Part shown: positions 1,441-29,769 of the stretch, piece after piece
Layout: the number at the start of each line of letters is the position of its first letter
How positions within the stretch are numbered: the first letter of the stretch is position 1
Assembly: GCA_026710905.1 (NCBI GenBank)
Contig: JAPOQD010000016.1
Location: 1 to 64,000, forward strand
DNA length: 64,000 nucleotides
Direction: 5' to 3'
Source of the DNA: Halieaceae bacterium
Lineage (GTDB): Bacteria; Pseudomonadota; Gammaproteobacteria; Pseudomonadales; Halieaceae
Made by a program: the position numbers and the translations under genes
Notes under the pieces: generated by a model
What the model was told of the DNA's origin: nothing
Databases searched by the model: none
The model's input: the letters and a program-made list of their open reading frames with translations, nothing else

Positions 1441-1446
1441 CCGCTA

Positions 1447-2614: not shown

Positions 2615-2690
2615 GGTGGCCTCCGGTTAAAACGTTATTTGCTTGTATGTAGACTGTGCCATTAAAAATATAGCAAAAGATATAATGTCT

Positions 2691-2719
2691 AAGGTGTGCC
2701 CCATAGTCAAGACACCAAT
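2691..2719. repeat. IS-end-like repeat, copy 1
   Basis: This site carries AAGGTG, then CCCCATAGTCAAGACACCAA. The same sequence, with two differing bases, recurs in direct orientation at 5344-5372. It resembles the outer ends of IS3-family elements, but no transposase lies nearby. The surrounding gap 2615-2983 is otherwise AT-rich and shows no gene. Confidence 0.5.
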
Positions 2720-2983
2720 TGTAGCCACAAAAATATAAGGGTCGTCAGGGTGGGCATACGCGACAAACCCTAATACAACTGCTGTCTGCCGGGACAATCG
2801 GATATTTACTCGCAGGGAGCCCTTGCATCACAAATTAGCGCAACTGTCCAGGAGTATAACTATTGCCATTTTACTATCGCCTTGGCCCATGCATTACTAC
2901 GTTGATTCCACACTTGCATAATATGTTCGCAAGCGTGTATTTATTACACTATGTAAATTTGTGATATGGCCAAGGAGCAAGAC

Positions 2984-3775: not shown

Positions 3776-3823
3776 ATTTTACAGTGGGAGATCAGTGATC
3801 CACTGCAATGGAGGTAGGCGAAA

Positions 3824-4081
3824 ATGGTGACGAAGTCTACTTTCTCCCCCAGAATTGCCATTTATGGGAGCGGATTTGTCGGTAGTTGTTTAACTCGCCT
3901 TGTTGTCGACAAGGGGTGGAAAATTGTCTCTGCCTATAACAGAGCGGGTAGTAAAATCGGACAGGATTCAGGTCAGTTGGCCGGACTTGATCGAAACCTC
4001 GATATCCCTATTCAGGATCGCAATAGCTCTTTATCGTTTAACAAAATCGAAAATTCCTTAACGGAGTCTGACGCATTGTAA
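3824..4081 (+). pseudogene. Truncated N-terminal paralog of the DapB-like oxidoreductase
   Basis: The first 65 or so of 85 residues align with the N-terminus of the convergent minus-strand gene at 4113-5138. Shared features are FSP at the start, the Rossmann motif GxGFVG, LTRL, KGW, AYNRAG, GQD and a DR/DC turn. After about residue 70 the similarity ends and the frame soon closes. Only the nucleotide-binding half-motif is retained, so it cannot be an active enzyme. It converges with its intact relative across a 31-bp gap. Confidence 0.75.
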
Positions 4082-4112
4082 AACTCTTCAGTCGGCCCCG
4101 GCGATGAGACGG

Positions 4113-5138
4113 CTAAAGTAATACACTTGGTTTTTCTGGACCAAGATTCATCAATTCCACAATACCGGGTTCTGCCGCAATCACATGTGGTATTCTGTTG
4201 AACAGACTGGAGGCCGAAGCGACACCGGAATCTTCACGTTTTACGGTTATTTCCATGCCAGGTAGTCCATTAACTCTCCAATGCATCAATTCTTCTTCAT
4301 CTTCCCTGAATACACGCCATTCAACGCAGCTTGATGCCTTGACACCTTCTTGTGTGAATACATCAATCAATACCCTGAGGCCGACCGACACGCCTGCCAC
4401 CAGTTCTTTGTCAAGTTCTGGACAATAGACGGGTTCGTCCCACAAGACGGGCTCTTGCCGTGTATCTACGTCCGTAACTGTGTAACCGTATTGTTGTAAT
4501 ACCGCGACCGAGGGTATTTGCAAGGTCTGGGAAAACGGTAGCGCCTTCCGTCCGAGTTTTTCGTCGAATTCTTCAACGGTCATACCTGCCCCCACCAAGG
4601 TTACAAACTGTGACCCCTGACGACCGATTTCCGTAGCGCTGTTATGCTCGATGGAATCGATCCTGACACAGGGTCCGGCACAGATGATGCCAGACCAAAT
4701 TCGTGTCATGTCCCAGATACCGCTGCCAGTAAAAGTGACCTCATTCTTTTTGGCCAAGGCCTCTATTTTTTTAGCGACTTCCCGGTTCATCCATCGCGGA
4801 TGATATGACTCCCCGCCATGGCACAATACATTGATACCCCTGCCCAGGAAGCGCTGATAAGCTGGAAAATTCTGCTCCAGAAAATCTGTAGAGGCGATCA
4901 ACGCTACGTCAGCATCAAGACTTGAGTAATCGGCTGTATCACAATCCTGAACAGTTACGCCGAGGTCCTTGTCGAGACTGGCCAATCTACCAAGATCCTG
5001 ACCGACTTTTTCACCTGCCCTGTTGTAGGCTGCAACAATGTCCCAGCCTTTCGCATGAGCGAGTCTTGTTAGCTCCTGGCCCACGAAACCGATCCCGTAG
5101 ATTACCAGTTTTGGTGAGAACTCTTGACGCATATTCAT
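4113..5138 (-). CDS. DapB-like NAD(P)H-dependent oxidoreductase
   Basis: This 341-residue protein has an N-terminal Rossmann fold (VIYGIGFVGQELTRLAHAKG) and a dihydrodipicolinate-reductase-like layout. It resembles the 2,4-diaminopentanoate dehydrogenase group more than true DapB, which is about 270 residues. Motifs include ALIASTDFLEQN after the first domain and a GSGIWDMTR segment. GGAGG stands about 10 nt upstream of the ATG. A second member of the family is at 15548-16612. The substrate is unknown. Relatives recur in gene clusters for cyclic compound degradation, and a ketone or imine reductase role is plausible but unproven. Confidence 0.75.
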   Translation of the reverse strand: MNMRQEFSPKLVIYGIGFVGQELTRLAHAKGWDIVAAYNRAGEKVGQDLGRLASLDKDLGVTVQDCDTADYSSLDADVALIASTDFLEQNFPAYQRFLGRGINVLCHGGESYHPRWMNREVAKKIEALAKKNEVTFTGSGIWDMTRIWSGIICAGPCVRIDSIEHNSATEIGRQGSQFVTLVGAGMTVEEFDEKLGRKALPFSQTLQIPSVAVLQQYGYTVTDVDTRQEPVLWDEPVYCPELDKELVAGVSVGLRVLIDVFTQEGVKASSCVEWRVFREDEEELMHWRVNGLPGMEITVKREDSGVASASSLFNRIPHVIAAEPGIVELMNLGPEKPSVLL

Positions 5139-15440: not shown

Positions 15441-15538
15441 GTTACAAGGTAACTACTCACGCCCCCACAGGCTGTAGGGGCGGCGCATGAATTCTCAACC
15501 CTGGACGGAGCAGGGGGAGCGAGTCGTTACGTTACAAG
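15441..15538. mobile_element. MITE-like element, copy 1, with 8-bp target duplication
   Basis: The element itself is 15449-15530 (82 bp). It begins GTAACTACTCACGC and ends GCGAGTCGTTAC, an imperfect terminal inverted repeat. It is flanked on both sides by GTTACAAG (15441-15448 and 15531-15538), a perfect 8-bp direct repeat. A second copy is at 29681-29761 in the opposite orientation. The right-hand duplication forms part of the ribosome-binding region of the next gene. Confidence 0.7.
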
Positions 15539-15547
15539 GTGAATTTA

Positions 15548-16612
15548 ATGTCAGATATCCATACTGGTTCAAACCGAGAAGTCAATCGAGTGGCCCAATG
15601 GGCGGCCGGTCGTATTGGTCGAAGCGCGATGCGTGCGGTTATTCGTCACCCGAACATGGAACTGGTGGGCTTGCATGTGCATTCAGCGGACAAGGTTGGG
15701 CAAGACGCCGGTGAGCTATGTGGATTATCACCAGTGGGTATTACGGCAACATGCAGCATCGATGACCTGATCCAAACCCGTCCTGATTGCGTGCTGTATA
15801 TGCCGGAGGGCTACGATATTGACGCTCTGGATAAACTGCTCAATGCGGGCATCAACATCGTTACCACTCGCAGTGAATTCTTCTATCCGCAAGGAATGGA
15901 ACCCGGGCTGCGGCAACGGATTGAAACAGCATGCAAAAATGGCGCGGCAACGCTATTCGCCACGGGCATTAGCCCGGGCTTCTCTACAGTCGTTCTACCG
16001 TTGGCATTATCCTATATCTCGCGCCAGATCGACTGCATTACAATCGATGAATTCGCCAATATCCCCGCATCCACAACGCCCAAAATGATCACTGACGTTA
16101 TGGGCTTTGGCAGCCCGGCTAAAGAGAAGTTTGACCCGGCACGGCTCGATCATGTTGCCACCGGTTTTTCCCAGTCCCTGGAGATCGTTACCTCGGCTAT
16201 GGATATCTCACTCGATGGGTTCAAATCCGAGGGAGAGTTTGCTCTTGCAGAGGAACCGGTTGAATTGCCCAATGGCTATATTATCCAGCCGGGTACCGTG
16301 GCTGGTCAAAGAATCACCGTTGCCGCCATGAGCAACCAGAAGCCCGTGTTACAGTTTCGCGCCAACTGGTATTGCACCCACGCTCTCGACAAGAATTGGG
16401 AGTTGGGCGATTCCGGCTGGCGTGTGCAAGTGGAAGGGGATACCCCGATGGATGTGAATATCAGTTTCCCGAAGTCTGGTGAGAGCTACGCCGACCAGAT
16501 GTCGGGCTTGACCGCTCATCCAGCTGTCAATGCAGTGCCTTACGTTTGCAAGGCTGCCCCCGGTATTGTTACTAATGCAGGGCTGCCCGTTATTGCACCA
16601 ATAATCGGCTGA
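15548..16612 (+). CDS. DapB-like NAD(P)H-dependent oxidoreductase, second member
   Basis: The ATG at 15548 has AAGG 8 nt upstream and is preferred over a GTG at 15539. The 354-residue protein carries an N-terminal Rossmann motif (RVAQWAAGRIGRSAMRAVIR) and the same overall plan as the 341-residue protein at 4113-5138, including the ATGISPGFSTVV segment where the other has GSGIWDMT. It belongs to the 2,4-diaminopentanoate-dehydrogenase-like group. It is followed after 32 bp by a molybdopterin oxidoreductase on the same strand, so the two redox enzymes are probably co-transcribed. The substrate is unknown. Confidence 0.75.
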   Translation: MSDIHTGSNREVNRVAQWAAGRIGRSAMRAVIRHPNMELVGLHVHSADKVGQDAGELCGLSPVGITATCSIDDLIQTRPDCVLYMPEGYDIDALDKLLNAGINIVTTRSEFFYPQGMEPGLRQRIETACKNGAATLFATGISPGFSTVVLPLALSYISRQIDCITIDEFANIPASTTPKMITDVMGFGSPAKEKFDPARLDHVATGFSQSLEIVTSAMDISLDGFKSEGEFALAEEPVELPNGYIIQPGTVAGQRITVAAMSNQKPVLQFRANWYCTHALDKNWELGDSGWRVQVEGDTPMDVNISFPKSGESYADQMSGLTAHPAVNAVPYVCKAAPGIVTNAGLPVIAPIIG

Positions 16613-16644
16613 CAGAAGATACCCATGCCGAGAATTTCTATCCA

Positions 16645-18675
16645 ATGACTGAAACCGGATCCTCAACCAAACGCACCCACTGTAAAATCTGCACCGCCCA
16701 GTGCGGCCTGCTGGTCGAAGTCGAGAACAATAGGATTACCAGGGTTAAAGGTGATCCGGAGCACCCGCTGAGCAAGGGCTATACCTGTCCAAAGGGTCGC
16801 GCCCTGGGACGACTGCATCACCAGCCCGACGCTCTTTCACAGCCGCTGATTCGCCAGGGCGAGAAATTGGTGGTGACCGATTGGAACAACTGCCTGGATG
16901 ACATCGCTGCTCGTTTACGAGCGATTATTGACGGGCACGGTACGAACTCCGTTGCCTTCTTTTTTGGCAGTGGCCTGGGTATGGACGCTGCAGGCTACCG
17001 TACTGCTGAAGCGTTTCATCAATCTCTTGGGGCTCCACCCAGGTTTTCACCAATGACAATCGACGGCGCCAACAAGGTGCTGGTATCCAGCCTGATGGGA
17101 GGCTTCCCTGGTCTTAACGGCAAAACCGACAACGAGCATGTAGATATGCTGGTCTATGTCGGCGTGAATCCTGTGGTGAGCCACGGTCACAATACCGGCA
17201 TGTTTAATCCGGCCAGAACGATACGAAATATTGCAGAGCGTGGCCAGGTCTGGACCATCGATCCGTTGCGTACCGAAACGGCTAAATTCTCCACTGAACA
17301 TATCGCGCCTTATCCCGGTAAGGATTACATAATACTGGCCTGGCTGGTAAGTGAAATTCTTGCCGATGGCCCGGTTGAACCCGCTCAGCCGGTTACCGGG
17401 ATGGAGGTACTGTCTGCAGCCCTGTCGGATCTGGACGCTGCCACTGCAGCGGCTATTGCCGGTGTTCCCGAGGCGCAACTGCACACATTGCTTGCGGCCA
17501 TTCGGCAGAGCAGTGGCGTAGTAGTGGAAACCGGCACGGGGGCGTCGATGAGCGTGAGCGCCAATCTCACACAGTGGTTTGCCTGGGTATTAATGATTCT
17601 TACAGGCACCATGAACCAGAAAGGCGGTTGCTGGTTCCACCCGGGTTTTATCACCCGGTTCGACAGCTTTGAACTGCCTCTATTGGATAATCCTTTCACC
17701 CCGGGTGCTCCCAGTATGCCACAGGTTTCCGGTTTGGTAGGTGAGTGGCCGTGCGCAGCCCTGGCGGGAGAGATTGACGCTGGCAACATTCGCGCACTGA
17801 TCAACCTGGGAGGCAGCATGTTACGCTCTTTCCCCGATGCCAACAGATTGAAGCCAGCATTGGAAAAGTTGGCATTAAACGTAACTTTTGAGGTGGTGGC
17901 CAATGAAACCACTGCAGTGTCAAGCCATGTGTTGCCCACCAAAGATCAGACGGAACGCCCCGAAATCTCTTTCTGGGATACGCTTTGCGGCAGCGTTTCA
18001 CTGTTTTATAACGAAGCGCTGCTTGAACCGCTGGGGGAGCGACGTTCCGCCTGGTGGGCGATCAGCCAACTGATGCAACGGTTGAACCTGGCTACGCCAG
18101 AACATGTGCCGGAACAAGACGACCACGCCGCAGACAATGCCATGCTGGCAGCCCAGATGCAGGGCGCGCGCTGCAGTTTTGATGAGTTGACCAAGGCAGG
18201 GCTGGTAAACCGACCGCTGCAGCTACCCGGAGACTGGGTAAACCGGCACATCGAACGAATTGGTGGCTGGCGCCTGGCGCCACAACCTCTGCTGCAGCAG
18301 TGGCAGGAAATATTCCTTGCGGACCAGGCGGAACTCGGGGCCGCCAGGCCGCTGTGTTTCATCCCGCGCCGTCAGCGTCGCAAGCTGAATGCTTCACTGA
18401 GTTTTCTGGGTAGCCCGGCCGACATTGTTTTACACCCACAAGATGCGCTGGAGCACGGTATTATGCACGGTCAAAGTATCAGTGTTGAAACCGAAAGTGG
18501 CCGCATTGAGCTGAAAGCCAATGTTAGTGACGAGGTTCGCCGTGGCGTTGCTTCCATCCCGCATGGGCACGAAACCGCCAATGTCAATCTGCTCACCAGT
18601 GCAGAGCAGGTAGACCGTCTTACCGGGATGGTGCGGTATACGGGTATCCCTTTCAGCATCTGCAACGCAAGCTAA
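16645..18675 (+). CDS. Molybdopterin-dependent oxidoreductase with [4Fe-4S] site
   Basis: This 676-residue cytoplasmic protein, with no Tat signal, opens with the iron-sulfur cysteine set HCKICTAQCG followed by YTCPKGRALG. This is the C-x2-C-x3-C-x27-C spacing of the DMSO reductase/formate dehydrogenase superfamily. The Mo-bis-MGD domain follows, with motifs such as WTIDPLRTETAK and a C-terminal dinucleotide-binding domain from about residue 560 (DIVLHPQDALEHGI). It is shorter than formate dehydrogenase alpha subunits (about 800 or more) and has no partner subunit beside it. The likely role is a hydroxylation or redox step on an organic substrate, possibly with the preceding DapB-like enzyme. 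No clear Shine-Dalgarno is visible. Confidence 0.8.
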   Translation: MTETGSSTKRTHCKICTAQCGLLVEVENNRITRVKGDPEHPLSKGYTCPKGRALGRLHHQPDALSQPLIRQGEKLVVTDWNNCLDDIAARLRAIIDGHGTNSVAFFFGSGLGMDAAGYRTAEAFHQSLGAPPRFSPMTIDGANKVLVSSLMGGFPGLNGKTDNEHVDMLVYVGVNPVVSHGHNTGMFNPARTIRNIAERGQVWTIDPLRTETAKFSTEHIAPYPGKDYIILAWLVSEILADGPVEPAQPVTGMEVLSAALSDLDAATAAAIAGVPEAQLHTLLAAIRQSSGVVVETGTGASMSVSANLTQWFAWVLMILTGTMNQKGGCWFHPGFITRFDSFELPLLDNPFTPGAPSMPQVSGLVGEWPCAALAGEIDAGNIRALINLGGSMLRSFPDANRLKPALEKLALNVTFEVVANETTAVSSHVLPTKDQTERPEISFWDTLCGSVSLFYNEALLEPLGERRSAWWAISQLMQRLNLATPEHVPEQDDHAADNAMLAAQMQGARCSFDELTKAGLVNRPLQLPGDWVNRHIERIGGWRLAPQPLLQQWQEIFLADQAELGAARPLCFIPRRQRRKLNASLSFLGSPADIVLHPQDALEHGIMHGQSISVETESGRIELKANVSDEVRRGVASIPHGHETANVNLLTSAEQVDRLTGMVRYTGIPFSICNAS

Positions 18676-18827
18676 GTCGGTAACAGCATTGGCGGCAAAT
18701 CCGTAATCCAGGACTTCGGATAATCGATGAGCGCCGCCTGAATTAGCTGTGCTCGTTTATGTTTGTGCAATAACCCGGGTTTCAGCCGCTCGATTTGTAT
18801 GCGAAGTAGGAGAACGACAAGGGTTTG

Positions 18828-19082
18828 ATGACGCAGATAAGATGTTTCAGTCGCTACCTGGTTATACTGATCGGTATTCTGGCCGCAGGCCCAAATGCCG
18901 CAGGTGAAGAGTTCAGGGGAAAAATCGGGCGCACGGAAGCGGAATCAAAGCCTTACTGGCCCAAGGTCGCCGAGTCGCTTGCCAACAACTGCTTTCACAT
19001 GGCGCTTATAATGCTCGCGCATCCTGCTGCCGCTGCAGCGACTGCTCCTGTGTCGGTCTTCCCGCTCTGCGGTAATTGTTAG
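18828..19082 (+). pseudogene. Arylsulfatase N-terminal fragment
   Basis: A signal-peptide start (YLVILIGILAAGPNAAGEEF) is followed by FRGKIGRTEAESKPYWPK. This is the conserved segment just after the signal peptide of periplasmic sulfatases, ahead of the usual PNVLxIxxDD motif. That motif, the formylglycine site and everything else are missing. After residue 48 or so the frame encodes an alanine-rich tail unrelated to sulfatases and stops at 19082. Confidence 0.6.
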
Positions 19083-19175
19083 TGGATATCTTTGCCATTA
19101 TGGGTTGCCCGCAGCTCGGAACATTTGCGTCTTTCGTGAATCGCCTGCCCTGGAATACAGCGTATACCCAAGCCA

Positions 19176-20441
19176 TCATTGAAGCGGTCTTTCGTCTATG
19201 GGAGGTTTTAAAAATAATGCTAGCAGGACTGACAGGGCAGCTGCACAGATAAATACATAAAACGCAGGGACATAGCTGCCTGCGGCATCGTAGATCTCGC
19301 CCACCATACGCACACCGACGATGGCCATACCCTTGGTGATGATGGTCATTAAGCCCATCACCGTGCCATAGCTCCCGGTGCCGAAAAGCCAGGCGAGCAG
19401 GGTGCTCCATGCGGGGAATACACCGCCGATGGCGACGCCAAGCAAGGTAGCGAAAATAAGTAATACCCAGTATGTGGGCTGCAAAATATACAAGACCTGC
19501 AAGGCTATATGGGCCAGTGCAATGCCGATAAAGACAAAGCGCAGGTCAACCCGGTCGGCGAGGTAACCGACTAACAGTTTGCCGCAGATTGCGGAGGCAG
19601 TCATACAGGAGATAATGAGTGCAGCGGCTGAAAGGTCGATGCCTATATCCTGGAAGTAAGGTACCTGGGCCGTGACCATGGCCTGGTCACAAAACAGCAT
19701 CAGGCCGATTGCCAGTGTCAGCAACCAGAAATTTCGGTTTGTAATCAGCTCGCGATACGTCCAGTTTTTTTCGTCGTTGGGGGGATTCTGACCTGCGGCA
19801 GACGAATTTTCGGGCGAGGTCTGGAACTCCCTGTCGAAGCCTGCTTCCGAGCCAAGTGGGCGATTTCGCACCAGCAGCAGTGTCATCAGGGTAATAGCGA
19901 GGAGCACTATCGCACTATTGATCAGCAGTGCATTACGCCAGTCGAAATTTTCGATCATGGTAGCTGTAAACGGCGCCATCAAAAAGCCGCCGGTGGATGT
20001 CGAAACCGCCATGATTCCCAGCGCCGTACCCCGCCGGCGCCGAAACCAGCGTACGATCACGGTGTTAATTGCGAGCGTGCCACAGGCGGTATAGCCATAG
20101 GCAACAGGAATAAAAATAATCAGTAACAGCAGCCAGTTTGAGTCGGTAAGAGTGAGAGCGAAAAGCCCACCCGAGTAGGTCACGCCACCTGACAATATCA
20201 CCAGACGAGCCGATACTTTATCCAGCAGGCGACCTACCAGGGGTGACAGCAGTGCAACACCCAGTAATAGAGCGATGTATCCATTGCTGATCGTCGCGCG
20301 ACTCATGCCGAGTTCGTCGGTCACCGGTACCACAAAAAGCCCGAACGTGTACGATGATGAACCCACTACCACTGCCGCGCAGATGAACAGGCCGGCATGT
20401 ACCCACCAGCCGCGGTACAATCGCTTTGAACTATCTGTCAC
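19176..20441 (-). CDS. MFS transporter, monocarboxylate/oxalate-formate type
   Basis: This 421-residue, 12-helix transporter begins with LYRGWWVHAGLFICAAVVVG, typical of monocarboxylate-porter-like bacterial MFS proteins. Helix 2-3 carries GRLLDKVSARLVI and the central loop is acidic with SPENSSAAGQNPPNDEKNW. The start is a GTG with only a weak upstream GAAGA. It shares family features with the MFS at 10216 and presumably imports an organic acid. The remnants of LuxC and an SDR lie just upstream on the same strand, so it may once have been the distal gene of that operon. Confidence 0.8.
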   Translation of the reverse strand: MTDSSKRLYRGWWVHAGLFICAAVVVGSSSYTFGLFVVPVTDELGMSRATISNGYIALLLGVALLSPLVGRLLDKVSARLVILSGGVTYSGGLFALTLTDSNWLLLLIIFIPVAYGYTACGTLAINTVIVRWFRRRRGTALGIMAVSTSTGGFLMAPFTATMIENFDWRNALLINSAIVLLAITLMTLLLVRNRPLGSEAGFDREFQTSPENSSAAGQNPPNDEKNWTYRELITNRNFWLLTLAIGLMLFCDQAMVTAQVPYFQDIGIDLSAAALIISCMTASAICGKLLVGYLADRVDLRFVFIGIALAHIALQVLYILQPTYWVLLIFATLLGVAIGGVFPAWSTLLAWLFGTGSYGTVMGLMTIITKGMAIVGVRMVGEIYDAAGSYVPAFYVFICAAALSVLLALFLKPPIDERPLQ

Positions 20442-20513
20442 GGTCCATCTTCAGTTGGCATTGGGTAAGTTCTCCTCATTCTGGAAAGGTGATGCTTTCG
20501 AAAACAAGCCAAT

Positions 20514-20633
20514 TCATTGAACCAGGAATGGAGCGACCAGCTTTTCACTCTCCCGCCGGAGTTTTACAGCTTCTTTACCAATACCGGAACTGGCGCCGCC
20601 AATGACCGCAACGTATTCTGTTGAAGCTTGCAT
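20514..20633 (-). pseudogene. 39-residue SDR remnant with internal deletion
   Basis: The frame runs MQASTEYVAVIGGASSGIGK, then EAVKLRRESEKLVAPFLVQ and a stop. The start carries the Rossmann glycine motif of an SDR (GGASSGIG). The rest is too short and reads like a join to the gene's end. It lies between the broken LuxC gene and the MFS gene on the same strand. Confidence 0.6.
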
Positions 20634-20664
20634 TTTTGCTATCCCGCTTGCGTAAATTTCTTAT

Positions 20665-20751
20665 TCAGTTTTCGACCACACCGTCCTTGAGCGCTATCCA
20701 GTGGACAAAGAAAGGGGCGGAAACAGGCGAACCGTTTTGTTCTGTACTCAT
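20665..20751 (-). pseudogene. LuxC-like acyl-CoA reductase start, truncated
   Basis: An ATG overlaps the stop of the LuxE-like gene (ATGA) and opens a 28-residue frame containing APFFVHWIALKDGVVEN before a stop. The PFFV-G-hydrophobic-x-G-x-VVE pattern matches the N-terminus of LuxC-type acyl-CoA reductases, which normally follow LuxE. The remaining 400 or more residues are gone. Confidence 0.5.
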
Positions 20752-22097
20752 GACACACCTCGTACATACGCATCTACAGTCCCCGCGCAACCGATCTTGT
20801 CGTCCCCTTCCAGGTCGGAGAAGCGCGCGATGTTGTCGCGGATGGATGGGCTCTTTGCACCGCAGGGGCAGGGGCTGAAGTCGATGGAAACCTTGTCGCC
20901 GGAGATCACGCCGCCCCAGCGACCGTCGAGGGAGAGATCGAAAAAGGCGGCGCGGCCTTCATATTCACTGTCCAAAATCGGCAACAGCTTATCGCCGGAC
21001 TTATCGAGAATCAGGGGCACTACCCAGGGTGGCAAGTGATAACGCTGGCCTTTCTGGCAACGCGGCATGGCGGACATGAGTTCCTGCATGCTGTAATTCT
21101 GGTAATTGCGCTGCGGGGCAATATTGAAAGTTTCGTAGACGAACTCGCGATAGTTCTCCGGTAGTTGCGCACCCTTGAGTCCGCCGCCCACATAACAGGA
21201 GTTCTCCGGGTTGAAGTCCCTGCCGCTGTAGCCCTTATCCCGGACCAACCTGGCAATGTTATAGAGGCTCGCCCACATGCCGGAGACATGCAATTTCTCA
21301 TGGCGCGCCCCAATGATGGCGCCGGCGGAAATTTCCAAGGCGTCATCCAGGTGTTTTTGTCGTTCGGCGGAGGTTTTTTCATAGTCCTGTAGATCGCTGG
21401 GTGTGGCAGTACCATCGGCAATTTTCTTGCGCAGCACCACCATTTTGGTGAGACCGCCCACGGTCATGGGGGGCGCCGGGTAATTGAAGGGTTCGGAACC
21501 GGGGGCCTGCAGGGCGTCAATGTACGCTCCACCAGTGACGCGGTTTCTGGCCACGCTGGCGACAGGCGCGAGCCCGAAGATACGGCGGTCATTAGCCGGA
21601 GTGACGCCAGAACCCCAGGCATAGGCAGCCACTGTCTCGACTTTGCACCACTTCATGTCTTTTGCTGAAGCCACCAGCATGGCGGATTTGCCAGTGGTGC
21701 CGCTGGAGCAGGAAACAAAAATTCCGTGCTGCTGCAACTTGTCGATCCAGTCGTCGATATCAGTAACCGTTGCAGGATCAATTTCAGGAATCGGCATGGA
21801 TGAGACTGTGCCAAGCCACTTGCCGAGTTTGTCCCATTTTTCTCCCAGCAAAAAACTTTCCGGATAGCTTTTGTACGCGGTATGGGGGAAAAGCACGTGA
21901 ACCATGTCTTCCAGGGAGCGGATTTCAGTCAGCCCCGCATCGTTGGCACGCTTGGCCAGAAGTTTGATTTTCTCTTTGCGACCCTGAAAACACTCGTTGA
22001 CGGCTTCAATCTGTGTCGCCTTGATCTCGGCGTACGGAATGTTGTACTTGTTTTGGTCGTTAACGAGGCTGGTAAGCTTCTCTATGGCTGAACTCAT
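20748..22097 (-). CDS. LuxE/PaaK-like acyl-protein or acyl-CoA synthetase
   Basis: The ATG at 22097 (449 residues) has GGAGG 7-8 nt upstream. An ATG six bases earlier sits too close to that site. The ANL-superfamily phosphate-binding motif FVSCSSGTTGKSAML is near residue 130, and the ligand-binding and hinge segments follow (QNYSMQELMSAMPRC, then CPCGAKSP near the end). Relatives are annotated LuxE, acyl-protein synthetase, and pass a fatty-acyl or cyclic acyl group to LuxC for reduction to an aldehyde. Here the LuxC partner starts with an overlapping ATGA but is truncated after 28 codons, so the pathway is broken at this locus. Confidence 0.75.
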   Translation of the reverse strand: MSSAIEKLTSLVNDQNKYNIPYAEIKATQIEAVNECFQGRKEKIKLLAKRANDAGLTEIRSLEDMVHVLFPHTAYKSYPESFLLGEKWDKLGKWLGTVSSMPIPEIDPATVTDIDDWIDKLQQHGIFVSCSSGTTGKSAMLVASAKDMKWCKVETVAAYAWGSGVTPANDRRIFGLAPVASVARNRVTGGAYIDALQAPGSEPFNYPAPPMTVGGLTKMVVLRKKIADGTATPSDLQDYEKTSAERQKHLDDALEISAGAIIGARHEKLHVSGMWASLYNIARLVRDKGYSGRDFNPENSCYVGGGLKGAQLPENYREFVYETFNIAPQRNYQNYSMQELMSAMPRCQKGQRYHLPPWVVPLILDKSGDKLLPILDSEYEGRAAFFDLSLDGRWGGVISGDKVSIDFSPCPCGAKSPSIRDNIARFSDLEGDDKIGCAGTVDAYVRGVS

Positions 22098-22167
22098 GGG
22101 CATTCCCTCCCGAACGGTTGTGTAGCGGTGCGCTTAATGAAACTATGCCGTATGGAGGTGGGAGCCG

Positions 22168-22207
22168 AAAAAAGGGCTCTGACCCCTTTTTTGCTGACCC
22201 CTTTTTT
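22168..22207. repeat. REP-like inverted and tandem repeat
   Basis: AAAAAAGGG and CCCCTTTTTT form a hairpin around CTCTGA. The half CTGACCCCTTTTTT is then repeated directly at 22194-22207. The GGGGTCAGAG core is close to the GGGGTCGGAG core of the element at 12992-13031. It sits between the LuxE-like gene and the TonB receptor terminator. Confidence 0.5.
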
Positions 22208-22252
22208 GCGACCAAATTCGATAATCACCACTACATATTCCGGCAAGCAGGC

Positions 22253-22283
22253 AAAAAAAACGGGACAGTGAAATCACTGCCCC
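22253..22283 (-). terminator. Rho-independent terminator of the TonB receptor gene
   Basis: Read on the minus strand, GGGGCAGTGA, a TT loop and TCACTGTCCC form a near-perfect 10-bp stem with one G-U pair. It is followed by G and eight T residues. It lies 24 bp after the receptor stop codon. Confidence 0.8.
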
Positions 22284-22306
22284 GGTTCAAAACAAGGGAA
22301 GCCGGA

Positions 22307-25054
22307 TTAGAAGAATGTGTATGTTAAGCCAATCTTGTAAGTCCGACCCAGTGTATAATGGCTATAGGCCACGTTTGAGGCAGGCCGACGATACTCGGGG
22401 GGATCTTCGTCGAACAGATTGCCCACATTAAAGCGTAAAGACAATCCATCAGCGATACCGCCGCTACCCTTGAAGTCATATCCGAGGAACAGGTCCGTCA
22501 CCAGGAAACTGTCGACTGACCCTTGCATGTTGGCCGAGTCGGCATTGAAGCCATCGGAGTACTTCAGCGTCACCTTGGCGCGAAGGTTGTCCCGGGTCCA
22601 GCCAACAATGCCTTGTACACCGAGATCCGAATTGAACTCAAGCTGATCAACCACCGTACCGCCCTGATTCAGGTCGAATTCCGTCTGGTAGTTGCCGGAC
22701 ACGCCATAGGTCATGCTGCCAATATTGGTATCGTGGGTATAGCTCACCACAAAGTCGACACCATTCATCTGAGCTTCGGAGAAGTTAGTGGTTACCCTGT
22801 CGTAGATATAAGCTATATCCTGGTTGGGGTTTGCTGGATCTACAACGCCGTCGAATACCTCGGGGTTCTGGATCTGATTCAAAATAGCTGCCCACTCGCC
22901 TGTCGTTACGGTCCAGATAAACTTATCGGGATTATTGAGGCGAACGGTCGGGTCGGGTACTGCCAACTGCCCGAGAATGTTGACGAAATCAATATCATAG
23001 TAATTGGCGCTGATTTTCAGTCCGTCGAGCGGAAACAAATCGAAGCCCAGAGCCCAGATTTCAGCGGTCTGCGGTTCCAGGTTAGCTGCTGCGCCCTCCA
23101 GAATTGGAATTATGAGACCTTCATCGTCGTACTCACCATAAACGTCAGTCTCTTCACCGGCTACTGAGGCCAGGGACCCCACTGCGAAACGGCCGTTTGA
23201 AATTGCCAGGGTATCCAGTGCAGTTGGTGCGTTAAATGCCTCGCCCCAGTGACCGTAGATAGAGATCCATTCTGCGGGTGTAAAATTAAACCCGATTTGT
23301 GGATTGGAGGTGTCGCCAAAATCACTGTAGTCGTCGTATCGCACCTGAAGGGACAAGTCCAGCGTGTCGAGCACAGGAACTGCCAGTTCCATAAATGCCG
23401 CCGTGTTATCCCGACTCGCCTTTTTGTAGCCTATACTTGATAGGCTGCCATTCGGGCCGGTGTTCGAGCGGGTGCGGACGCTATCCTCATACCACTCAAG
23501 GCCGACAGCCATTCGCAATGCACCCGCTGGCAATTCGAAAACGGGACCATCCGCCACTGCGCGGGTGAGGAACAGTTCGTGCTCGGTTTCGTTCTCGCTC
23601 TCCCAATCCAGGATATCATTTATGACTGACGCATCGGCCGAAGCGATATCCAGCGGGTTAAGCTGCCCGGAGGTAACGTAGCCTGCCATTGCAACCTCGT
23701 TTGTCTCTGGACGGAGATTGCTATTTTCGGATTCACCGTAGTAGAGCGTTGCGCGCAACTGCCAATCACCGGCCATCGCTACAGTCAACTCCGGTGCAAT
23801 ACCCCAGGTTGACATTTCAATTTCCTGGTCACGACCCCTGTAGTCTGGATGAGCGCCATAGGAAAAGCCCGCGCCATTGGGGTAGTCGTAAACACTACCG
23901 GTGCCGAAGTCACCCGGATCCGGAAGCCCGAATTGATCAATGGTTTCCTGGTCAAGGTCCGCGGGACTGGTGTTGGCAACATCAAAGGGTGCGGGGGCCA
24001 CGCTTCCCAGGGGGTAGGCGTTATAGGTGTTGGTGCGATCCGAGTAATAGGCTTTAACACCGAAGTTAATGCTCTCATTGATGTCCTGTTTATAAGCGAG
24101 GAACGCTCCATCCCTCTGCTGCTCGGGTAACAACTGAGCCTGCGAGAACTGGTCACACCCTGGGTCTCCGGCCGATTTAGGGCCGGCTCCCGGGGCGCGC
24201 GGATTGTTTGTCCACCCTGCGCCGTAGTTGAACCAACCGTACACCGTACGAACCGGATCGAGACAGGTGGTCGCTACTTCAGGAGTAAACTCACCGGTGT
24301 CGTCATCATAAAAGCCGGTTTTGGCCCAATCCCGATCACCGTTCAGGAGTTCATCCCGATCGGTGTGAATGAACGCTGCATAGATCGACCCACCATCCCA
24401 ACTGGTTCCACCGATCAGATTGACGCTGGTGCTGTCATAGTCATCAGCTGCGCCATAGTCCAGGTCAATCTGAACACCATCGAACTCGTCCTTAGTGACG
24501 AAGTTGATGACACCGGCAACCGCGTCGGCGCCGTACAGGGCTGATCCGCCATCGGTCACGATGTCAACACTTCGAATCGTATTGTTAAGAAAGACATCCG
24601 CGTCAATTGCTGCCTCGTTTACACCCACCGGTGCTATGCGATGACCGTCCATCAACAGCAGTGTTACTGAGCCGGAGGCCGAATTGAAGCCCGGCATATT
24701 ACGCAGATTAGGGCGCGACATGGTAATGCTGTCGGACCCGCGGGGATTCCCTTCCGGCCTGCTGTTGAAATAGTTAGTAACCTGCGGCACGGTTGCGAGA
24801 ATCTCGTTGGTGGTGACAGCGCCAAGTTCAAGGATGTCCTGGGTGCTGATGCCGATGGTCTGGGAACCGGTTACCTCTGTGCCCCGGATCAGGGTGCCGG
24901 TAACAACAACTTCCTCAAGCTTGTCTCCCTCCTGCTCCTGTTGCCCCTGAACGGCTGCGGCGCCCAGGGTTGCGAGCAACACTCCCGACATGGTCCGAAC
25001 GGATTTTTTCAGGGCAAAACCGGGTAACGGTCTGTTTCGATTAGAGTAAGGCAT
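22307..25054 (-). CDS. TonB-dependent outer-membrane receptor
   Basis: This 915-residue protein has a signal region (SVRTMSGVLLATLGAAAVQG), a TonB-box-like EEVVVTGTLIRG at about residue 47, a plug domain with LRNMPGFNSASGSVTLLLMD and IVTDGGSALYGADAVAGVIN, and a long beta-barrel. It ends in the aromatic TYKIGLTYTFF expected of outer-membrane insertion. The plug type (GTLIRG start, DGGSALYGADA) is the one common in Xanthomonadales and marine gammaproteobacteria for glycans or large hydrophobic ligands. The ligand is unknown. It is divergent from the glycoside hydrolase module, so a role in glycan uptake is plausible. A terminator ends the unit. Confidence 0.9.
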   Translation of the reverse strand: MPYSNRNRPLPGFALKKSVRTMSGVLLATLGAAAVQGQQEQEGDKLEEVVVTGTLIRGTEVTGSQTIGISTQDILELGAVTTNEILATVPQVTNYFNSRPEGNPRGSDSITMSRPNLRNMPGFNSASGSVTLLLMDGHRIAPVGVNEAAIDADVFLNNTIRSVDIVTDGGSALYGADAVAGVINFVTKDEFDGVQIDLDYGAADDYDSTSVNLIGGTSWDGGSIYAAFIHTDRDELLNGDRDWAKTGFYDDDTGEFTPEVATTCLDPVRTVYGWFNYGAGWTNNPRAPGAGPKSAGDPGCDQFSQAQLLPEQQRDGAFLAYKQDINESINFGVKAYYSDRTNTYNAYPLGSVAPAPFDVANTSPADLDQETIDQFGLPDPGDFGTGSVYDYPNGAGFSYGAHPDYRGRDQEIEMSTWGIAPELTVAMAGDWQLRATLYYGESENSNLRPETNEVAMAGYVTSGQLNPLDIASADASVINDILDWESENETEHELFLTRAVADGPVFELPAGALRMAVGLEWYEDSVRTRSNTGPNGSLSSIGYKKASRDNTAAFMELAVPVLDTLDLSLQVRYDDYSDFGDTSNPQIGFNFTPAEWISIYGHWGEAFNAPTALDTLAISNGRFAVGSLASVAGEETDVYGEYDDEGLIIPILEGAAANLEPQTAEIWALGFDLFPLDGLKISANYYDIDFVNILGQLAVPDPTVRLNNPDKFIWTVTTGEWAAILNQIQNPEVFDGVVDPANPNQDIAYIYDRVTTNFSEAQMNGVDFVVSYTHDTNIGSMTYGVSGNYQTEFDLNQGGTVVDQLEFNSDLGVQGIVGWTRDNLRAKVTLKYSDGFNADSANMQGSVDSFLVTDLFLGYDFKGSGGIADGLSLRFNVGNLFDEDPPEYRRPASNVAYSHYTLGRTYKIGLTYTFF

Positions 25055-25406
25055 CTGTATATTCCTCTTACGATGATGAAAAGCAACTATCTACGGATGT
25101 TGGTTAATCTTATTACTTTTGTCTAGCAGAGCGATGTGCCTGGTTCTGCACACCCTCCGCCCGGGAGCTCCCGGACTGACAACACTGTCTACCTAAACGC
25201 TAAGCTACCTAGCTTGATTTGGATTTTTCCAATGTACCCATAGGCCCAATCTATTAGCCATGTAAAATGCAATATATCAACAGCAATTATGAAAGTCCAC
25301 AGTTGCCCAACACTGTTGTTCAACAGGCGGTGAAGACCGCACAGACCTTGAGAACCGCGAACTCATCTACCAGGTTTTTTCCCTACTCCGAACAAAGGGT
25401 GATTTT
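25055..25406. other. Divergent promoter region
   Basis: This 352-bp gap between the TonB receptor and the glycan module contains AT-rich stretches (25100-25130 and 25200-25310) suited to promoters in both directions. I see no gene, no clear operator and no repeat. Confidence 0.4.
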
Positions 25407-25514
25407 ATGAGCAATTCCATCTGCCTCGTTCTCGATATGATGAACAATCTGGTGCACCCCGATCGACCCAACGGTTTCTGGCCGGTTAATGGTAGACAGC
25501 AGGACCTGACTTGA
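25407..25514 (+). pseudogene. Isochorismatase-family N-terminal fragment
   Basis: A 35-residue frame starts MSNSICLVLDMMNNLVHPDR then PNGFWPVNG. It matches the first strand and catalytic-Asp loop of cysteine hydrolases of the isochorismatase family (LVLDMMN-x-x-VHP). It stops after 35 codons where a family member has about 190-220. Its stop codon lies 11 bp before the GH79-like gene. Confidence 0.6.
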
Positions 25515-25525
25515 GGTACGGATTC

Positions 25526-27097
25526 ATGAAACAGAACAAAGTGTATCTGACTGTGGCAGCGGTGCTGAGCTGTATTTCGCTGGGCACGGTTCAGGCGGCG
25601 TCCTCGACGCCAGAACCCAGGCGCCTCAACGTCGAAAGCATGCCGCTGGTCCGCACTATCGACGAGCGGTTCCAGTCCTTTCAGATTGGCATGTCGCATC
25701 TGACGGGTGGAGATACCTGGATTTCGTATGCTGCCATGGGCAAGGGGGATACCCAACGCGACTACGCTGGTGATCTGACGCCCATCCGGGAGCCGCGCGC
25801 GCCTGCCGATCTGACCAATGCGCGGCTTCGAACCCTGGCCGCCGCGCTCGGTCCCTTCTATGTCCGCTACGGGGGTACGACGACTAATTCCGTCTATTTC
25901 CAGGACAACGACGAACCCCGCCTGGAGGAAATCCCGGAAGGGTACGGGAAACTGCTGACACGTAAAGCCTGGAAAGGGGCTCTCGAGTTCGCCGAGGCTG
26001 TCGACGCCAGAGTGGTGACAGGGTTCACCATCAGCGAAGGCGTGCGCGATGAATTCGGTATCTGGACTCCCACCCATGCTGCGCCCTGGCTGGCCTATAC
26101 ACAGTCTATCAGCGGTGAAATCTACGCAGCCGAGATGTTCAACGAACCGAATATGGCGGCCTATGACAAGATGCTGAAGGACTATGATGCGGCCCGATTT
26201 GCGAAAGACTTTGCCGCATTCCACGCCTTCATGAACAAAGCTGCGCCGAACCTGAAAGTTGCCGGACCCGGCGATGTTGAAGTCGGCCTGTACAAGGAGG
26301 GCATGCCTGGCAGCCTCACTGCTGAGGACTATCTGAGTGCGAACTCGAAGCCGCAATTCGACATTCTTAGCTATCATTATTACGGCGCCCTTTCAGAGCG
26401 TTGTGCTCCGCCGGATTCCGAGCGGGGTATCAGTGCCGAAAAGGCCCTGTCGGAGGACTGGCTGGCCCGCCAGGATAGATCTCTCCAGAGGCGAGTGGCG
26501 CTGCGCGACCAGTATGCGCCCGGTGCGCCGATCTGGAACACGGAAACCGGCTCGGCCGCCTGCGGCGGTACCCGCTGGGCGCCGACCTTTCTCGATATCT
26601 TCCGCTATCTGGATACCAACGCCCGCCTGGCCGGGCAGGGCCTGGACGCGATTTTTACCCATGCATTGATCAGTGGCAGCAACGGGGTAATCGACGAAAA
26701 AACGTTCATGCCCAACCCCAATTACTGGGCGGCGCTGATGTGGCAGCGCCTAATGGGGACCAGGATTCTGGACACCGGCCCTTTGACGCCCGGCTTGCAT
26801 CTTTATGCACACTGCCAGCGGGGTAATCCCGAGGGCGTGACGGTCCTGGCTATAAATCTCAAGGATAAAATGGCGCAACTGAACCTTCCGGGGACCGCCG
26901 ACGTCTATGCGTTGACGGCTCCGGAATTACAGAGCAGAGGCGTTTTACTGAACGGTAAACCGCTGGCGCTCGGTTCGGACGATACGCTTCCAGAGATCAC
27001 ACCGGCGAAGGTTGATGGAAGCCATATCACCCTGGCGCCCACGAGCGCGAATTTTTTGGTTGTTCCCAATACCGGCAACCCGGAATGCTCTAAATAA
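25526..27097 (+). CDS. GH79-like (heparanase/beta-glucuronidase type) secreted hydrolase
   Basis: The ATG at 25526 opens a signal peptide (VYLTVAAVLSCISLGTVQA). The mature protein follows the clan GH-A plan of heparanases. It has LGPFYVRYGGTTTNSVYF, like the conserved strand-1 LRFGGT region, and AAEMFNEPNMAAYDK with the acid/base Glu of the NEP motif. The nucleophile-type segment is WNTETGSAACGGTRWAPTFL, and a C-terminal beta domain follows. The expected reaction is endo- or exo-hydrolysis of beta-glucuronosyl linkages in the periplasm. The gene heads a same-strand run with another glycoside hydrolase 35 bp downstream. GH30/GH39 relatives are alternatives, but the heparanase-like YGG and ETGSA segments favour GH79. 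Confidence 0.75.
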   Translation: MKQNKVYLTVAAVLSCISLGTVQAASSTPEPRRLNVESMPLVRTIDERFQSFQIGMSHLTGGDTWISYAAMGKGDTQRDYAGDLTPIREPRAPADLTNARLRTLAAALGPFYVRYGGTTTNSVYFQDNDEPRLEEIPEGYGKLLTRKAWKGALEFAEAVDARVVTGFTISEGVRDEFGIWTPTHAAPWLAYTQSISGEIYAAEMFNEPNMAAYDKMLKDYDAARFAKDFAAFHAFMNKAAPNLKVAGPGDVEVGLYKEGMPGSLTAEDYLSANSKPQFDILSYHYYGALSERCAPPDSERGISAEKALSEDWLARQDRSLQRRVALRDQYAPGAPIWNTETGSAACGGTRWAPTFLDIFRYLDTNARLAGQGLDAIFTHALISGSNGVIDEKTFMPNPNYWAALMWQRLMGTRILDTGPLTPGLHLYAHCQRGNPEGVTVLAINLKDKMAQLNLPGTADVYALTAPELQSRGVLLNGKPLALGSDDTLPEITPAKVDGSHITLAPTSANFLVVPNTGNPECSK

Positions 27098-27132
27098 ACG
27101 CTCCGGTGTCTCAGCAACAGGAGGATAACAAT

Positions 27133-28674
27133 ATGTATGTCAATGTACGGAACAAGATAGTAGCGCCAGTATTGACGGCGTTGACCCTGGCCGCGGGTGC
27201 TCTGACTGGTTATGCCCAGTCGTCTCCGTCACAGACAAAGGCGACGGTCACGGTCGATTTCAACGAGTCTCGCGGGGATTTTCTGCATCCGGAACGCTAC
27301 AACAATTTCACTCGCTGGAACCGCTGGCAGCCGCAGCGCGATGCCGACATTCGTTTCTTCAACGAGCAGGGCCTGCATGGCGAGATCTACAAGGTGTGGG
27401 TCGATGCTGAGCGTATCCACGATCCGGAAACGGACACCTATGATTACGCGGGGCTTGACGATTACCTCGCCGATGCAAGCCTCGTCTCGGACGAGTTGCT
27501 GATGGTCATGGATACGCGCGTATCGGTGCGCGACATGGATCGCAGTCCGGCCGATATCAAACCGATCATCAAGCGCATCATGACCGATTTGAAGCGGCGT
27601 TACCCGCGAATTCGCTATGTCGAGGCGTTCAACGAGCCGGATCACAATCTGGCGAAGAACTTGACGCCCGCTGGCTTGTATGACTATTACAAGGTCTATT
27701 ACGAGGCGGTTAACGAGATCAATCGCGAGCTGCAGCCGCTGGTGCCGCTTGAGATCGGCGGACCCGGCTACATGCAGTACAACGAAACCTGGATGTACGC
27801 CTTCCTCGATCGCTATGCGGATGATCCCTCGCCCGACAAGAAACTCGACTTTCTTTCGTGGCACGCTTACGGCAGGTTTCCCGAGGGAACCGGCGACAGT
27901 AGCGGACCGCGTGCTTTCCATTTCTACAAGGGTAATCCCAGCGAAATCGCCGGTGAGCGCGAACTGTTGAATGCCGCACTGAGCAGGCGCGGGCTGGACA
28001 CGGAAATTCCCGCGTTCATAACCGAGACCGGCATCTATCCCGGTCCCTCCTATGACCATAAGGACGACCCTCGGCCGGACTACCTTATCGGCGCGGCGGG
28101 GGTACCTTCGCTGCATTACTGGTACATGGAGCAGCCCGACACCTACCCGTTTAACTGGGTCGTCCGCCACTTCAGCGAAGAGCGCAAGGACCAGTTGATA
28201 TCCCGCGCTCGCGACGGCGAACACATCGCGGTCAAGGGTACCGAGAATGTCGAGGACTTGCCCACCAACATCTTCACGCCCTACGGTAACGCGCTGAAGA
28301 TGATGGTCATGCTAAAGAGAGAGCGTGTGGCAGCGCAGTCCGATGCGCTGGACGAGGGTAAAGGCATCTACAGCATCGCCACCAGGGATGAATATGGCGT
28401 CGCGGTGATGGTGTGGAATTATCAGCACATCGAACAGCAGACCTTTGCGGTGACGATCGACATGGGTGAACTGCCCGCCAACCTGCGCGGTCGTCCCGTA
28501 CGCCAGCAGATGTTCCGCATCGACGATCAGGTCAGCAATTACTGGGCAGACCCGGCGCGCGCGAACCTGCAGATGATCTCGGAGTCTGTTCTTGAACCGA
28601 GTGAAAACCACAGCGTGTCGATCGATCTGACGCCGAATGCGCTACAGTCGATTGTTCTTGAACCCGTAAAGTAA
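27133..28674 (+). CDS. Secreted clan GH-A glycoside hydrolase, GH39-like
   Basis: The ATG at 27133 has CAGGAGG about 9 nt upstream. The 513-residue protein has a signal peptide (VLTALTLAAGALTGYAQ). The TIM-barrel family marks are YVEAFNEPDHNLAKNL, with the acid/base Glu, and EIPAFITETGIYPGPSYD, with the nucleophile Glu. The FLSWHAYGRFP segment is typical of GH39 and related arabino- and xylosidase families. A C-terminal beta domain covers about residues 390-513. It follows the GH79-like gene in the same direction and likely acts on the same polysaccharide. The exact specificity is not determinable here. Confidence 0.75.
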   Translation: MYVNVRNKIVAPVLTALTLAAGALTGYAQSSPSQTKATVTVDFNESRGDFLHPERYNNFTRWNRWQPQRDADIRFFNEQGLHGEIYKVWVDAERIHDPETDTYDYAGLDDYLADASLVSDELLMVMDTRVSVRDMDRSPADIKPIIKRIMTDLKRRYPRIRYVEAFNEPDHNLAKNLTPAGLYDYYKVYYEAVNEINRELQPLVPLEIGGPGYMQYNETWMYAFLDRYADDPSPDKKLDFLSWHAYGRFPEGTGDSSGPRAFHFYKGNPSEIAGERELLNAALSRRGLDTEIPAFITETGIYPGPSYDHKDDPRPDYLIGAAGVPSLHYWYMEQPDTYPFNWVVRHFSEERKDQLISRARDGEHIAVKGTENVEDLPTNIFTPYGNALKMMVMLKRERVAAQSDALDEGKGIYSIATRDEYGVAVMVWNYQHIEQQTFAVTIDMGELPANLRGRPVRQQMFRIDDQVSNYWADPARANLQMISESVLEPSENHSVSIDLTPNALQSIVLEPVK

Positions 28675-28681
28675 CAGGGAG

Positions 28682-28885
28682 AAAGGCGGCCGCTGGAACA
28701 CCTGCGAAATCAAAGCCGTAGGCCCACAGCTAATTCTGAAACTGAACGGCGAGATCACAGTCGACGTGGAGGATTCCCGGCTCGGTCAGGGATACATTGG
28801 CCTGCAATGGGGCGAGGGAACCGGCATGTTCCGCGAAGTAAAGATCAAGCAACTTAAGGAGATGGAGAGTGGGAGCCATCCATGA
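28682..28885 (+). pseudogene. C-terminal remnant of a DUF1080 (3-keto-disaccharide hydrolase) protein
   Basis: The frame reads GRWNTCEIKAVGPQLILKLN, then DVEDSRLGQGYIGLQWGEGT and FREVKIKQL, ending at 28885. This is the final strand set of DUF1080/3-keto-glycoside hydrolase-type lectin-like domains. The N-terminal part is missing, replaced by the end of the preceding hydrolase gene. Its tail overlaps the start of the small membrane protein gene. Confidence 0.7.
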
Positions 28886-29066
28886 TTTCCTGCTGGTGTT
28901 TGGTTACTACGCTCTTTTCACGGGTGCTATCGGATATGGCATTATTGCCGCCACCAATGGCAGCCTGTTCAATACCGGCTTTATTATTGCGGCCATGATT
29001 GTCCTCGGCGCGATTGCCATCATTGTGAAATATGGTGTCGGCCACGCCCGGCGCCATATAAAATAG
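28869..29066 (+). CDS. Small two-helix membrane protein
   Basis: A GTG start with AAGGAG about 10 nt upstream gives 65 residues with two hydrophobic helices (FLLVFGYYALFTGAIGYGII and FIIAAMIVLGAIAIIVKYGV) and a basic tail GHARRHIK. I do not recognise it. Position between glycan genes and a clean ribosome site suggest it is expressed. Confidence 0.5.
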   Translation: MGAIHDFLLVFGYYALFTGAIGYGIIAATNGSLFNTGFIIAAMIVLGAIAIIVKYGVGHARRHIK

Positions 29067-29120
29067 CTGTTTCTCTGGACATCGATTCGACAGCTTCCGA
29101 TCAATAGGAAAAGGTGGAAA

Positions 29121-29666
29121 TTGCACACCCTCAAGAATAAAACCACGTTTTTTCAATATTACGCCCCTCTTTTCTTGTTGAGTTGGCGAGCCGCAATGGT
29201 AACGGTAGTTCTCGCGCTGCTAATGGTGAGCGGCACTGTCCTCGCGCAGTATGTCTATATCGCTCACGATGCCACCCTTGCAGAGGCTGAGTATGCCTCG
29301 CGCAAGCTTACGAATGCGCTGGAGTCACAGGGCTATTCCGTAGTGGGCTCGGCACGCGACTATGATTACCTGATCAGCGTTTCTGTGGGCGGCTATCGAT
29401 TGGAGAAAGAGGCGTTCACCATCATACCCGAGGGGCGCATCCTGTCCGTGTATGGCGGTGACGGGCGGGGCATGATCTACGGTGTGCTGGGGGATCAAGT
29501 TATCGATGTTACCAGGCCCATCTATCGCGATATGCTGCTGACACACATGATCGGGAGCAGCAAGAATTTGAATCCTGACGGGCTATTCCACTGGGAAATG
29601 ATCCGACCGCAGGTCGCGAAAGATGTACGAGTGGTACGCAATGCGGTGAGTGGGGTCAGGGAATAG
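29121..29666 (+). pseudogene. In-frame deletion derivative of an alpha-glucuronidase-like paralog
   Basis: The first 115 residues match the N-terminal domain of the 720-residue protein at 13164-15326, including a signal sequence, SRKLTNALESQGYSV and GRGMIYGVL. The last 60 match its extreme C-terminus (VIDVTRPIYRDMLLTHM against VITITRPIYHNMPLTHY, then LFHWEMIR against LFHWALIR). About 565 residues between are missing and the frame is kept. The catalytic barrel is gone, so it cannot be the same enzyme. Either it is a deletion scar or a secreted two-domain leftover still being translated: a start codon and AGGTGG ribosome site remain. Confidence 0.75.
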
Positions 29667-29672
29667 AAAAAA

Positions 29673-29769
29673 GCCATGCCGTAACCACTCGCACCCCTGC
29701 TCCTTCCGGGGTTGGGAATTGATACGCCGGCAGGCGGGTGCGTACGTGCGTGAGTAGTTACGCCATACC
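29673..29769. mobile_element. MITE-like element, copy 2, with near-perfect 8-bp target duplication
   Basis: The element is 29681-29761 (81 bp). It starts GTAACCACTCGC and ends GCGTGAGTAGTTAC, the reverse orientation of the copy at 15449-15530. The flanks are GCCATGCC (29673-29680) and GCCATACC (29762-29769), seven of eight identical. The remaining 240 bp to the next gene show no other feature. Confidence 0.65.

What the first reader, a model, noticed from the sequence alone, without database searches (positions are those of the whole stretch)
15441..29769. A small mobile element family with 8-bp target duplications
Two copies (15449-15530 and 29681-29761, opposite orientation) share ends GTAACTACTCACGC and an AATTC-CAACCC-GGA-GGAGCAGGGG interior. 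Each is flanked by 8-bp direct repeats: GTTACAAG on both sides of the first, GCCATGCC and GCCATACC around the second. This is the classical mark of transposition. I know of no named element with these ends. It encodes no protein, so it depends on a transposase elsewhere. In the first copy the duplicated 8 bp forms part of the downstream gene's ribosome-binding region.
Basis: seen in the sequence. Interest (0 to 1): 0.65.

Follow-up and report, generated by a model that had tools for sequence, protein, structure and literature searches.

The report
IS66-type miniature transposon family (MITE)
Two short DNA repeats in this window belong to a family of about 40 small "hitch-hiking" transposons that carry no gene of their own and, judging by their ends and 8-base target duplications, were copied by a jumping-gene enzyme of the known IS66 (ISBst12) kind that is not found in the available genome sequence.

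Summary
The window holds two MITE copies: 15449-15530 (82 bp, perfect 8-bp duplication GTTACAAG) and 29681-29761 (81 bp, 7/8 duplication). The same draft genome has about 40 copies or fragments. Intact ones are about 156-216 bp, and the two window copies are separately internally deleted forms. Over 35 candidate end pairs, exact flanking repeats occur at 8 bp (8 pairs) and at none of 5-7 or 9-12 bp. The ends GTAACTACTC(A/G)C and the 8-bp duplication are those of the ISBst12 group of the IS66 family: lab-active ISDge4, Geobacillus ISGst1, and complete elements in other Gammaproteobacteria. One of these (L198) has a terminus identical over 15 bp to the MITE's right end. The available assembly contains no IS66 transposase, so the mobilising enzyme was lost, lies in an assembly gap, or acted from elsewhere. 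Beyond the original finding, two opposed MITEs on contig C171 share their outer 8-bp flank and enclose a 4.5-kb helicase-gene segment, so they look like a MITE-built composite transposon. Overall: a new MITE family of a known kind; its IS66 origin appears undescribed in the open literature I could search.

The parts
15441..15448 (.). target-site duplication, left of copy 1 (GTTACAAG)
15449..15530 (+). MITE copy 1, 82 bp; keeps about 41 bp of the left end and about 42 bp of the right end of the longer element
15449..15462 (+). left terminal repeat of copy 1, GTAACTACTCACGC
15517..15530 (-). right terminal repeat of copy 1, read inward GTAACGACTCGCTC
15531..15538 (.). target-site duplication, right of copy 1 (GTTACAAG); its last 3 bases form part of the downstream ribosome-binding site
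15536..15541 (+). probable ribosome-binding site AAGGTG of the downstream gene
   Evidence: inference from spacing
15548..16612 (+). downstream gene, DapB / 2,4-diaminopentanoate dehydrogenase-like oxidoreductase (354 aa)
29673..29680 (.). target-site duplication, one side of copy 2 (GCCATGCC)
29681..29761 (-). MITE copy 2, 81 bp, reverse orientation; keeps about 14 bp of the left end and about 70 bp of the right end of the longer element
29748..29761 (-). left terminal repeat of copy 2, GTAACTACTCACGC
29681..29694 (+). right terminal repeat of copy 2, GTAACCACTCGCAC
29762..29769 (.). target-site duplication, other side of copy 2 (GCCATACC, 7/8)

Best explanation
[quoted passage not shown] Shown here: terminal inverted repeats GTAACTACTC(A/G)C, 8-bp target duplications, about 40 copies or fragments at unrelated sites, no coding capacity, and autonomous ISBst12-group elements elsewhere with the same ends and the same duplication length. 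Inferred: that such a transposase once worked, or still works, in this lineage; and that the 81-82 bp copies arose by internal deletion and moved in that form, since both still have duplications. Not known: whether the enzyme is still in the cell. A multicopy 1.7-kb IS would typically be missing from a 222-contig draft.
For: Exact 8-bp duplications around many copies and none at other lengths. Unbiased end searches around ISBst12-type transposases recovered GTAACTGCTCAGCA, GTAACTACTTAGGT, GTAACTATTCAGC(G/C) and similar ends with perfect 8-bp duplications. In other Gammaproteobacteria the ends are GTAACTACTCACCC, GTAACTACTCACTC and GTAACTACTCGCCC/GTAACTACTCGCGC, with perfect duplications. L198's terminus is 15/15 identical to the consensus MITE right end, and its 482-aa protein passes the NCBIfam IS66 cut-off. 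Published ISDge4 (IS66, ISBst12 group) has TIRs GTGACTACTCAGCA/GTAACTGCTCAGCA and an 8-bp duplication, and it transposed in the lab (PMC12898284).
Against: No IS66 transposase in the assembled genome, so no resident partner is demonstrated. Similarity to the autonomous elements is confined to about 12-18 terminal bases, so a direct parent has not been found. About nine copies lack matching flanks.
Confidence: 0.9

Rival explanations
1. The MITE is mobilised by a different DDE transposase whose ends happen to look like those of ISBst12.
For: No IS66 transposase in the assembly. Homology to the autonomous elements is limited to the termini.
Against: The end motif, the duplication length and the GTAAC start all fall within the variation seen inside one IS66 subgroup, including 15/15 identity with L198.
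Confidence: 0.06
2. A structured regulatory RNA or conserved intergenic repeat rather than a mobile element.
For: Copies fold somewhat better than shuffled sequence (z about -1.9). Internal palindromes exist in perfectly paired variants.
Against: Scattered sites with 8-bp duplications, strongly varying internal length, absence from 38 relatives, and no Rfam match in the window. The terminal inverted repeats alone predict the hairpin.
Confidence: 0.02
3. REP/BIME-type palindrome mobilised by a Y1 (RAYT) transposase.
For: The interior contains GC-rich palindromes like those of extragenic palindromic repeats.
Against: To my knowledge Y1 systems make no target duplications and have no terminal inverted repeats. 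Here both are present.
Confidence: 0.02

Closest known systems
ISDge4 (IS66 family, ISBst12 group; Deinococcus geothermalis; PMC12898284)
   Same: Ends GTGACTACTCAGCA/GTAACTGCTCAGCA, i.e. the first 11 bases read GT(A/G)ACT(A/G)CTCA; 8-bp duplication.
   Different: Encodes a 449-aa transposase; bases 12-14 differ; unrelated host.
Unnamed gammaproteobacterial ISBst12-group elements L197, L198, L199, L200, L209, L210
   Same: Ends GTAACT(A/G)CTC(A/G)C. Perfect 8-bp duplications in L197, L198, L200, L209 and L210. L198 is 15/15 identical to the consensus MITE right end.
   Different: 1.7 kb (L199 2.25 kb) with a single transposase gene; no interior similarity to the MITE.
ISGst1 / ISBst12 (Geobacillus)
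   Same: Ends GTAACTATTCAGCC/GTAACTATTCACCC; 8-bp duplication (ISGst1).
   Different: Autonomous; about 30% protein identity to the gamma subgroup.
MITEAba12 and other bacterial MITEs (PMC6382973, PMC3189936)
   Same: Same kind of object: 100-500 bp, no gene, terminal repeats shared with an IS, target duplications; some MITEs flank cargo like composite transposons.
   Different: MITEAba12 is tied to ISAba12 with 9-bp duplications, MITEPsy1 to ISPsy2 with 4-bp; no sequence relation.

Membership tests
MITE (miniature inverted-repeat transposable element) | short, no transposase gene | tested here: met
   81-216 bp for typical copies; far too short for a transposase gene
MITE (miniature inverted-repeat transposable element) | terminal inverted repeats | tested here: met
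   10-14 bp GTAACTACTC(A/G)C at both ends
MITE (miniature inverted-repeat transposable element) | target-site duplication of fixed length | tested here: met
   exactly 8 bp
MITE (miniature inverted-repeat transposable element) | multiple dispersed copies | tested here: met
   44 matches on many contigs
MITE (miniature inverted-repeat transposable element) | empty sites in related strains | not tested
   no close relative is held; the 38 relatives lack the element altogether and are too distant for site comparison
IS66 family, ISBst12 group (as its non-autonomous derivative) | ends starting GTAA with group-type terminal repeat | tested here: met
   ISDge4 in PMC12898284
IS66 family, ISBst12 group (as its non-autonomous derivative) | 8-bp target duplication | tested here: met
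   the same in autonomous members
IS66 family, ISBst12 group (as its non-autonomous derivative) | a cognate transposase in the same genome | tested here: inconclusive
   not found by PF03050 or by protein and profile queries, but the assembly is a 222-contig draft with contigs ending inside MITE copies
IS66 family, ISBst12 group (as its non-autonomous derivative) | mobilisation by an IS66 transposase | not testable with these tools
   needs a transposition assay

The most novel reading that the evidence does not exclude
Pairs of these transposase-less MITEs can move host or foreign genes as composite transposons. On contig C171, two opposed MITEs (224-414 and 4893-5063) lack duplications of their own but share the exact outer 8-mer GAATTACG, around a UvrD / helicase IV-like gene and an unknown gene. 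An IS66-type enzyme would then have moved a 4.8-kb unit whose ends are both MITEs.
Probability: 0.7. Interest if true: 0.45.

Novelty: new member of a known kind. Interest (0 to 1): 0.35.

Why it matters
It gives a sequence-level link between a gene-less repeat family and the ISBst12 group of IS66, whose transposition mechanism is called insufficiently characterised (PMC12898284). I found no paper describing MITEs of this group in the open library searched. Many short derivatives with intact duplications narrow down the minimal ends an IS66-type transposase needs to about 14 bp on one side, which a donor-plasmid assay can test directly. The composite-like unit suggests such repeats can carry genes.

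Tried and rejected
Classical three-gene (tnpA/B/C) IS66 as the source: the two such elements with a duplication found here end in GTAAGCGTC.. or GTAACCGTC.., a poorer match. DruA plus IS66 elements with ends GTAACCGTTCACGG (L038, L101-L105, L109, L110): also 8-bp duplications, but only 10/14 end identity, so cousins and not the partner. Searching IMG/VR with paired-end patterns: mostly chance inverted pairs, with one plausible unrelated GTAACTACTCAGCC MITE (L136). Interior-core search in viral contigs and a left-end-plus-core pattern in genome contigs: nothing. Plasmid BLASTN: nothing convincing. Looking for a conserved position upstream of the DapB-like gene in relatives: no element there. 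First pass at Deinococcus H53 picked the wrong transposase (ends of another IS66 type); corrected with L179/L182/L183.

Full report
OBSERVATION. Copy 1 is GTTACAAG-[15449-15530, 82 bp]-GTTACAAG. Copy 2, reverse strand, is flanked by GCCATGCC and GCCATACC. The exact left end GTAACTACTCACGC occurs 22 times in the 3.73-Mb, 222-contig genome that holds the window, and 0 times when the pattern is read backwards. With one mismatch it occurs 38 times.

THE FAMILY. Reading the copies shows a longer element of about 156-216 bp: GTAACTACTCACGCCCCCACAGGTTGTAGGGGCGGCGCATGCGCCGCCCGCACATCCGGGGAGCC...CGCCTGCCGGCGCACCAATTCCCAACCCCGGACGGAGCAGGGGGGCGAGTAGTTAC. Its 189-bp consensus matches 44 places in the genome (a few copies give two matches, others are fragments). 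The window copies are different internal deletions of it: copy 1 keeps about 41 bp of the left and about 42 bp of the right, copy 2 about 14 bp of the left and 70 bp of the right. Both short forms still have duplications, which suggests that they were mobile after shortening (inference).

TARGET DUPLICATION. In 35 candidate end pairs, including some spurious pairings, flanks match exactly over 8 bp in 8 cases and with one mismatch in 4. No pair matches exactly at 5, 6, 7, 9, 10, 11 or 12 bp. Shuffled flanks give about 0.5 pairs at <=1 mismatch. Two further copies whose halves lie on different contigs can be rejoined by their shared 8-mers: GATTTTTC for C23/C57 and CATCAACT for C86/C195. One of these sits inside an hsdR-like reading frame (judged by eye).

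WHICH TRANSPOSASE. The genome gives no match to PF03050, to DruA, to two IS66-type proteins or, at the strict limit used, to the ISBst12 profile. The PF03050 model does recognise the relevant transposases. Relatives were used to find what kind of enzyme has such ends. DruA plus IS66 elements end in GTAACCGTTCACGG with 8-bp duplications. Searching without assuming an end sequence around single-gene ISBst12-type transposases recovered, with perfect 8-bp duplications, GTAACTGCTCAGCA (Deinococcus), GTAACTACTTAGGT (Planococcus), GTAACTATTCAGCG (Paraburkholderia) and GTAACTATTCAGCC/ACCC (Geobacillus ISGst1). In other Gammaproteobacteria the ends become GTAACTACTCACCC, GTAACTACTCACTC and GTAACTACTCGCCC/GTAACTACTCGCGC. 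These last elements form one subgroup (60-75% protein identity to L198). L198's terminus equals the last 15 bases of the consensus MITE. The MITE's two ends, GTAACTACTCACGC and GTAACTACTCGCCC, therefore lie inside the variation of this subgroup. The published ISDge4 has GTGACTACTCAGCA/GTAACTGCTCAGCA, an 8-bp duplication and observed transposition (PMC12898284).

WHY THE ENZYME IS NOT SEEN. Three possibilities remain: the IS was lost, it lies in unassembled sequence, or it acts from another replicon. Several contigs end inside MITE copies, so a 1.7-kb repeated IS could easily be missing from this draft. The data do not separate these.

DISTRIBUTION. None of 38 relatives has the 14-mer. In 392 genomes of the order, only single chance-like hits of the 13-mer occur outside this genome. 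The family thus looks private to this lineage among what is held.

EFFECT ON NEIGHBOURS. Copy 1 lies 17 bp before the ATG (15548) of a DapB / 2,4-diaminopentanoate dehydrogenase-like gene. The right-hand duplicate keeps the ribosome-binding site AAGGTG whole. The MITE can form a terminal hairpin, so an effect on expression is possible but untested. Copy 2 starts 15 bp after the end of an open frame (29121-29666).

COMPOSITE UNIT. On contig C171 two full-length copies in opposite orientation (224-414, 4893-5063) have no duplications of their own, but their outer flanks are both GAATTACG. Inversion between two copies would not give this pattern; insertion of the whole 4.84-kb segment would. The cargo is a 987-aa UvrD / helicase IV-like protein and a 320-aa unknown. 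The PADLOC hits are generic UvrD-helicase matches and do not establish a defence system.

KNOWN OR NEW. MITEs are well known, and MITE pairs flanking cargo are known from Acinetobacter (PMC6382973). I found no description of MITEs belonging to the ISBst12 group or with these ends in the open-access library; subscription papers and ISfinder were not searchable. The finding is a real, well-formed MITE family, and new as a family, but not a new kind of thing.

Noticed in passing
L231 (G000:C171) 216-5071: Composite-like unit: two opposed MITEs with shared outer 8-mer GAATTACG around a UvrD/helicase IV-like gene and an unknown 320-aa gene.
   Followed up: partly
L233 (G000:C195:12500-14655), about 1365-1440 onward, with L234 (C86 end): A MITE copy inside an hsdR-like frame appears to be interrupted by sequence resembling the 3' end of a group II intron (recognised by eye); the two halves share the 8-mer CATCAACT/AGTTGATG.
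   Followed up: partly
own-genome MITE copies, e.g. L002, L004, L011: The element's internal 20-bp palindrome occurs in alternative perfectly paired forms (GGGCCGCGCATGCGCGGCCC, GGGCGGCGCATGCGCCGCCC, GGGCGACGCATGCGTCGCCC), as if both arms change together; it may be an independent nested palindromic repeat.
   Followed up: partly
L009, L015, L023, L029, L030: A second dispersed palindrome, AAAAAAGGG(G/C)TC(A/T)GA(G/C)CCCTTTTTT or related, sits inside or next to several MITE copies.
   Followed up: no
L038/L101 (49-2633 in L038), L102, L103: IS66-type transposons with ends GTAACCGTTCACGG; 8-bp duplications in L102 and L103. In L038 a DruA (Druantia)-family gene precedes the DUF6444/IS66 transposase, a possible transposon relative of a phage-defence protein.
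   Followed up: partly
L136 13262-13423 (IMGVR_UViG_2921114623): An unrelated AT-rich 146-bp element with ends GTAACTACTCAGCC and a 7/8 flanking repeat; probably another ISBst12-type MITE in a different organism.
   Followed up: no
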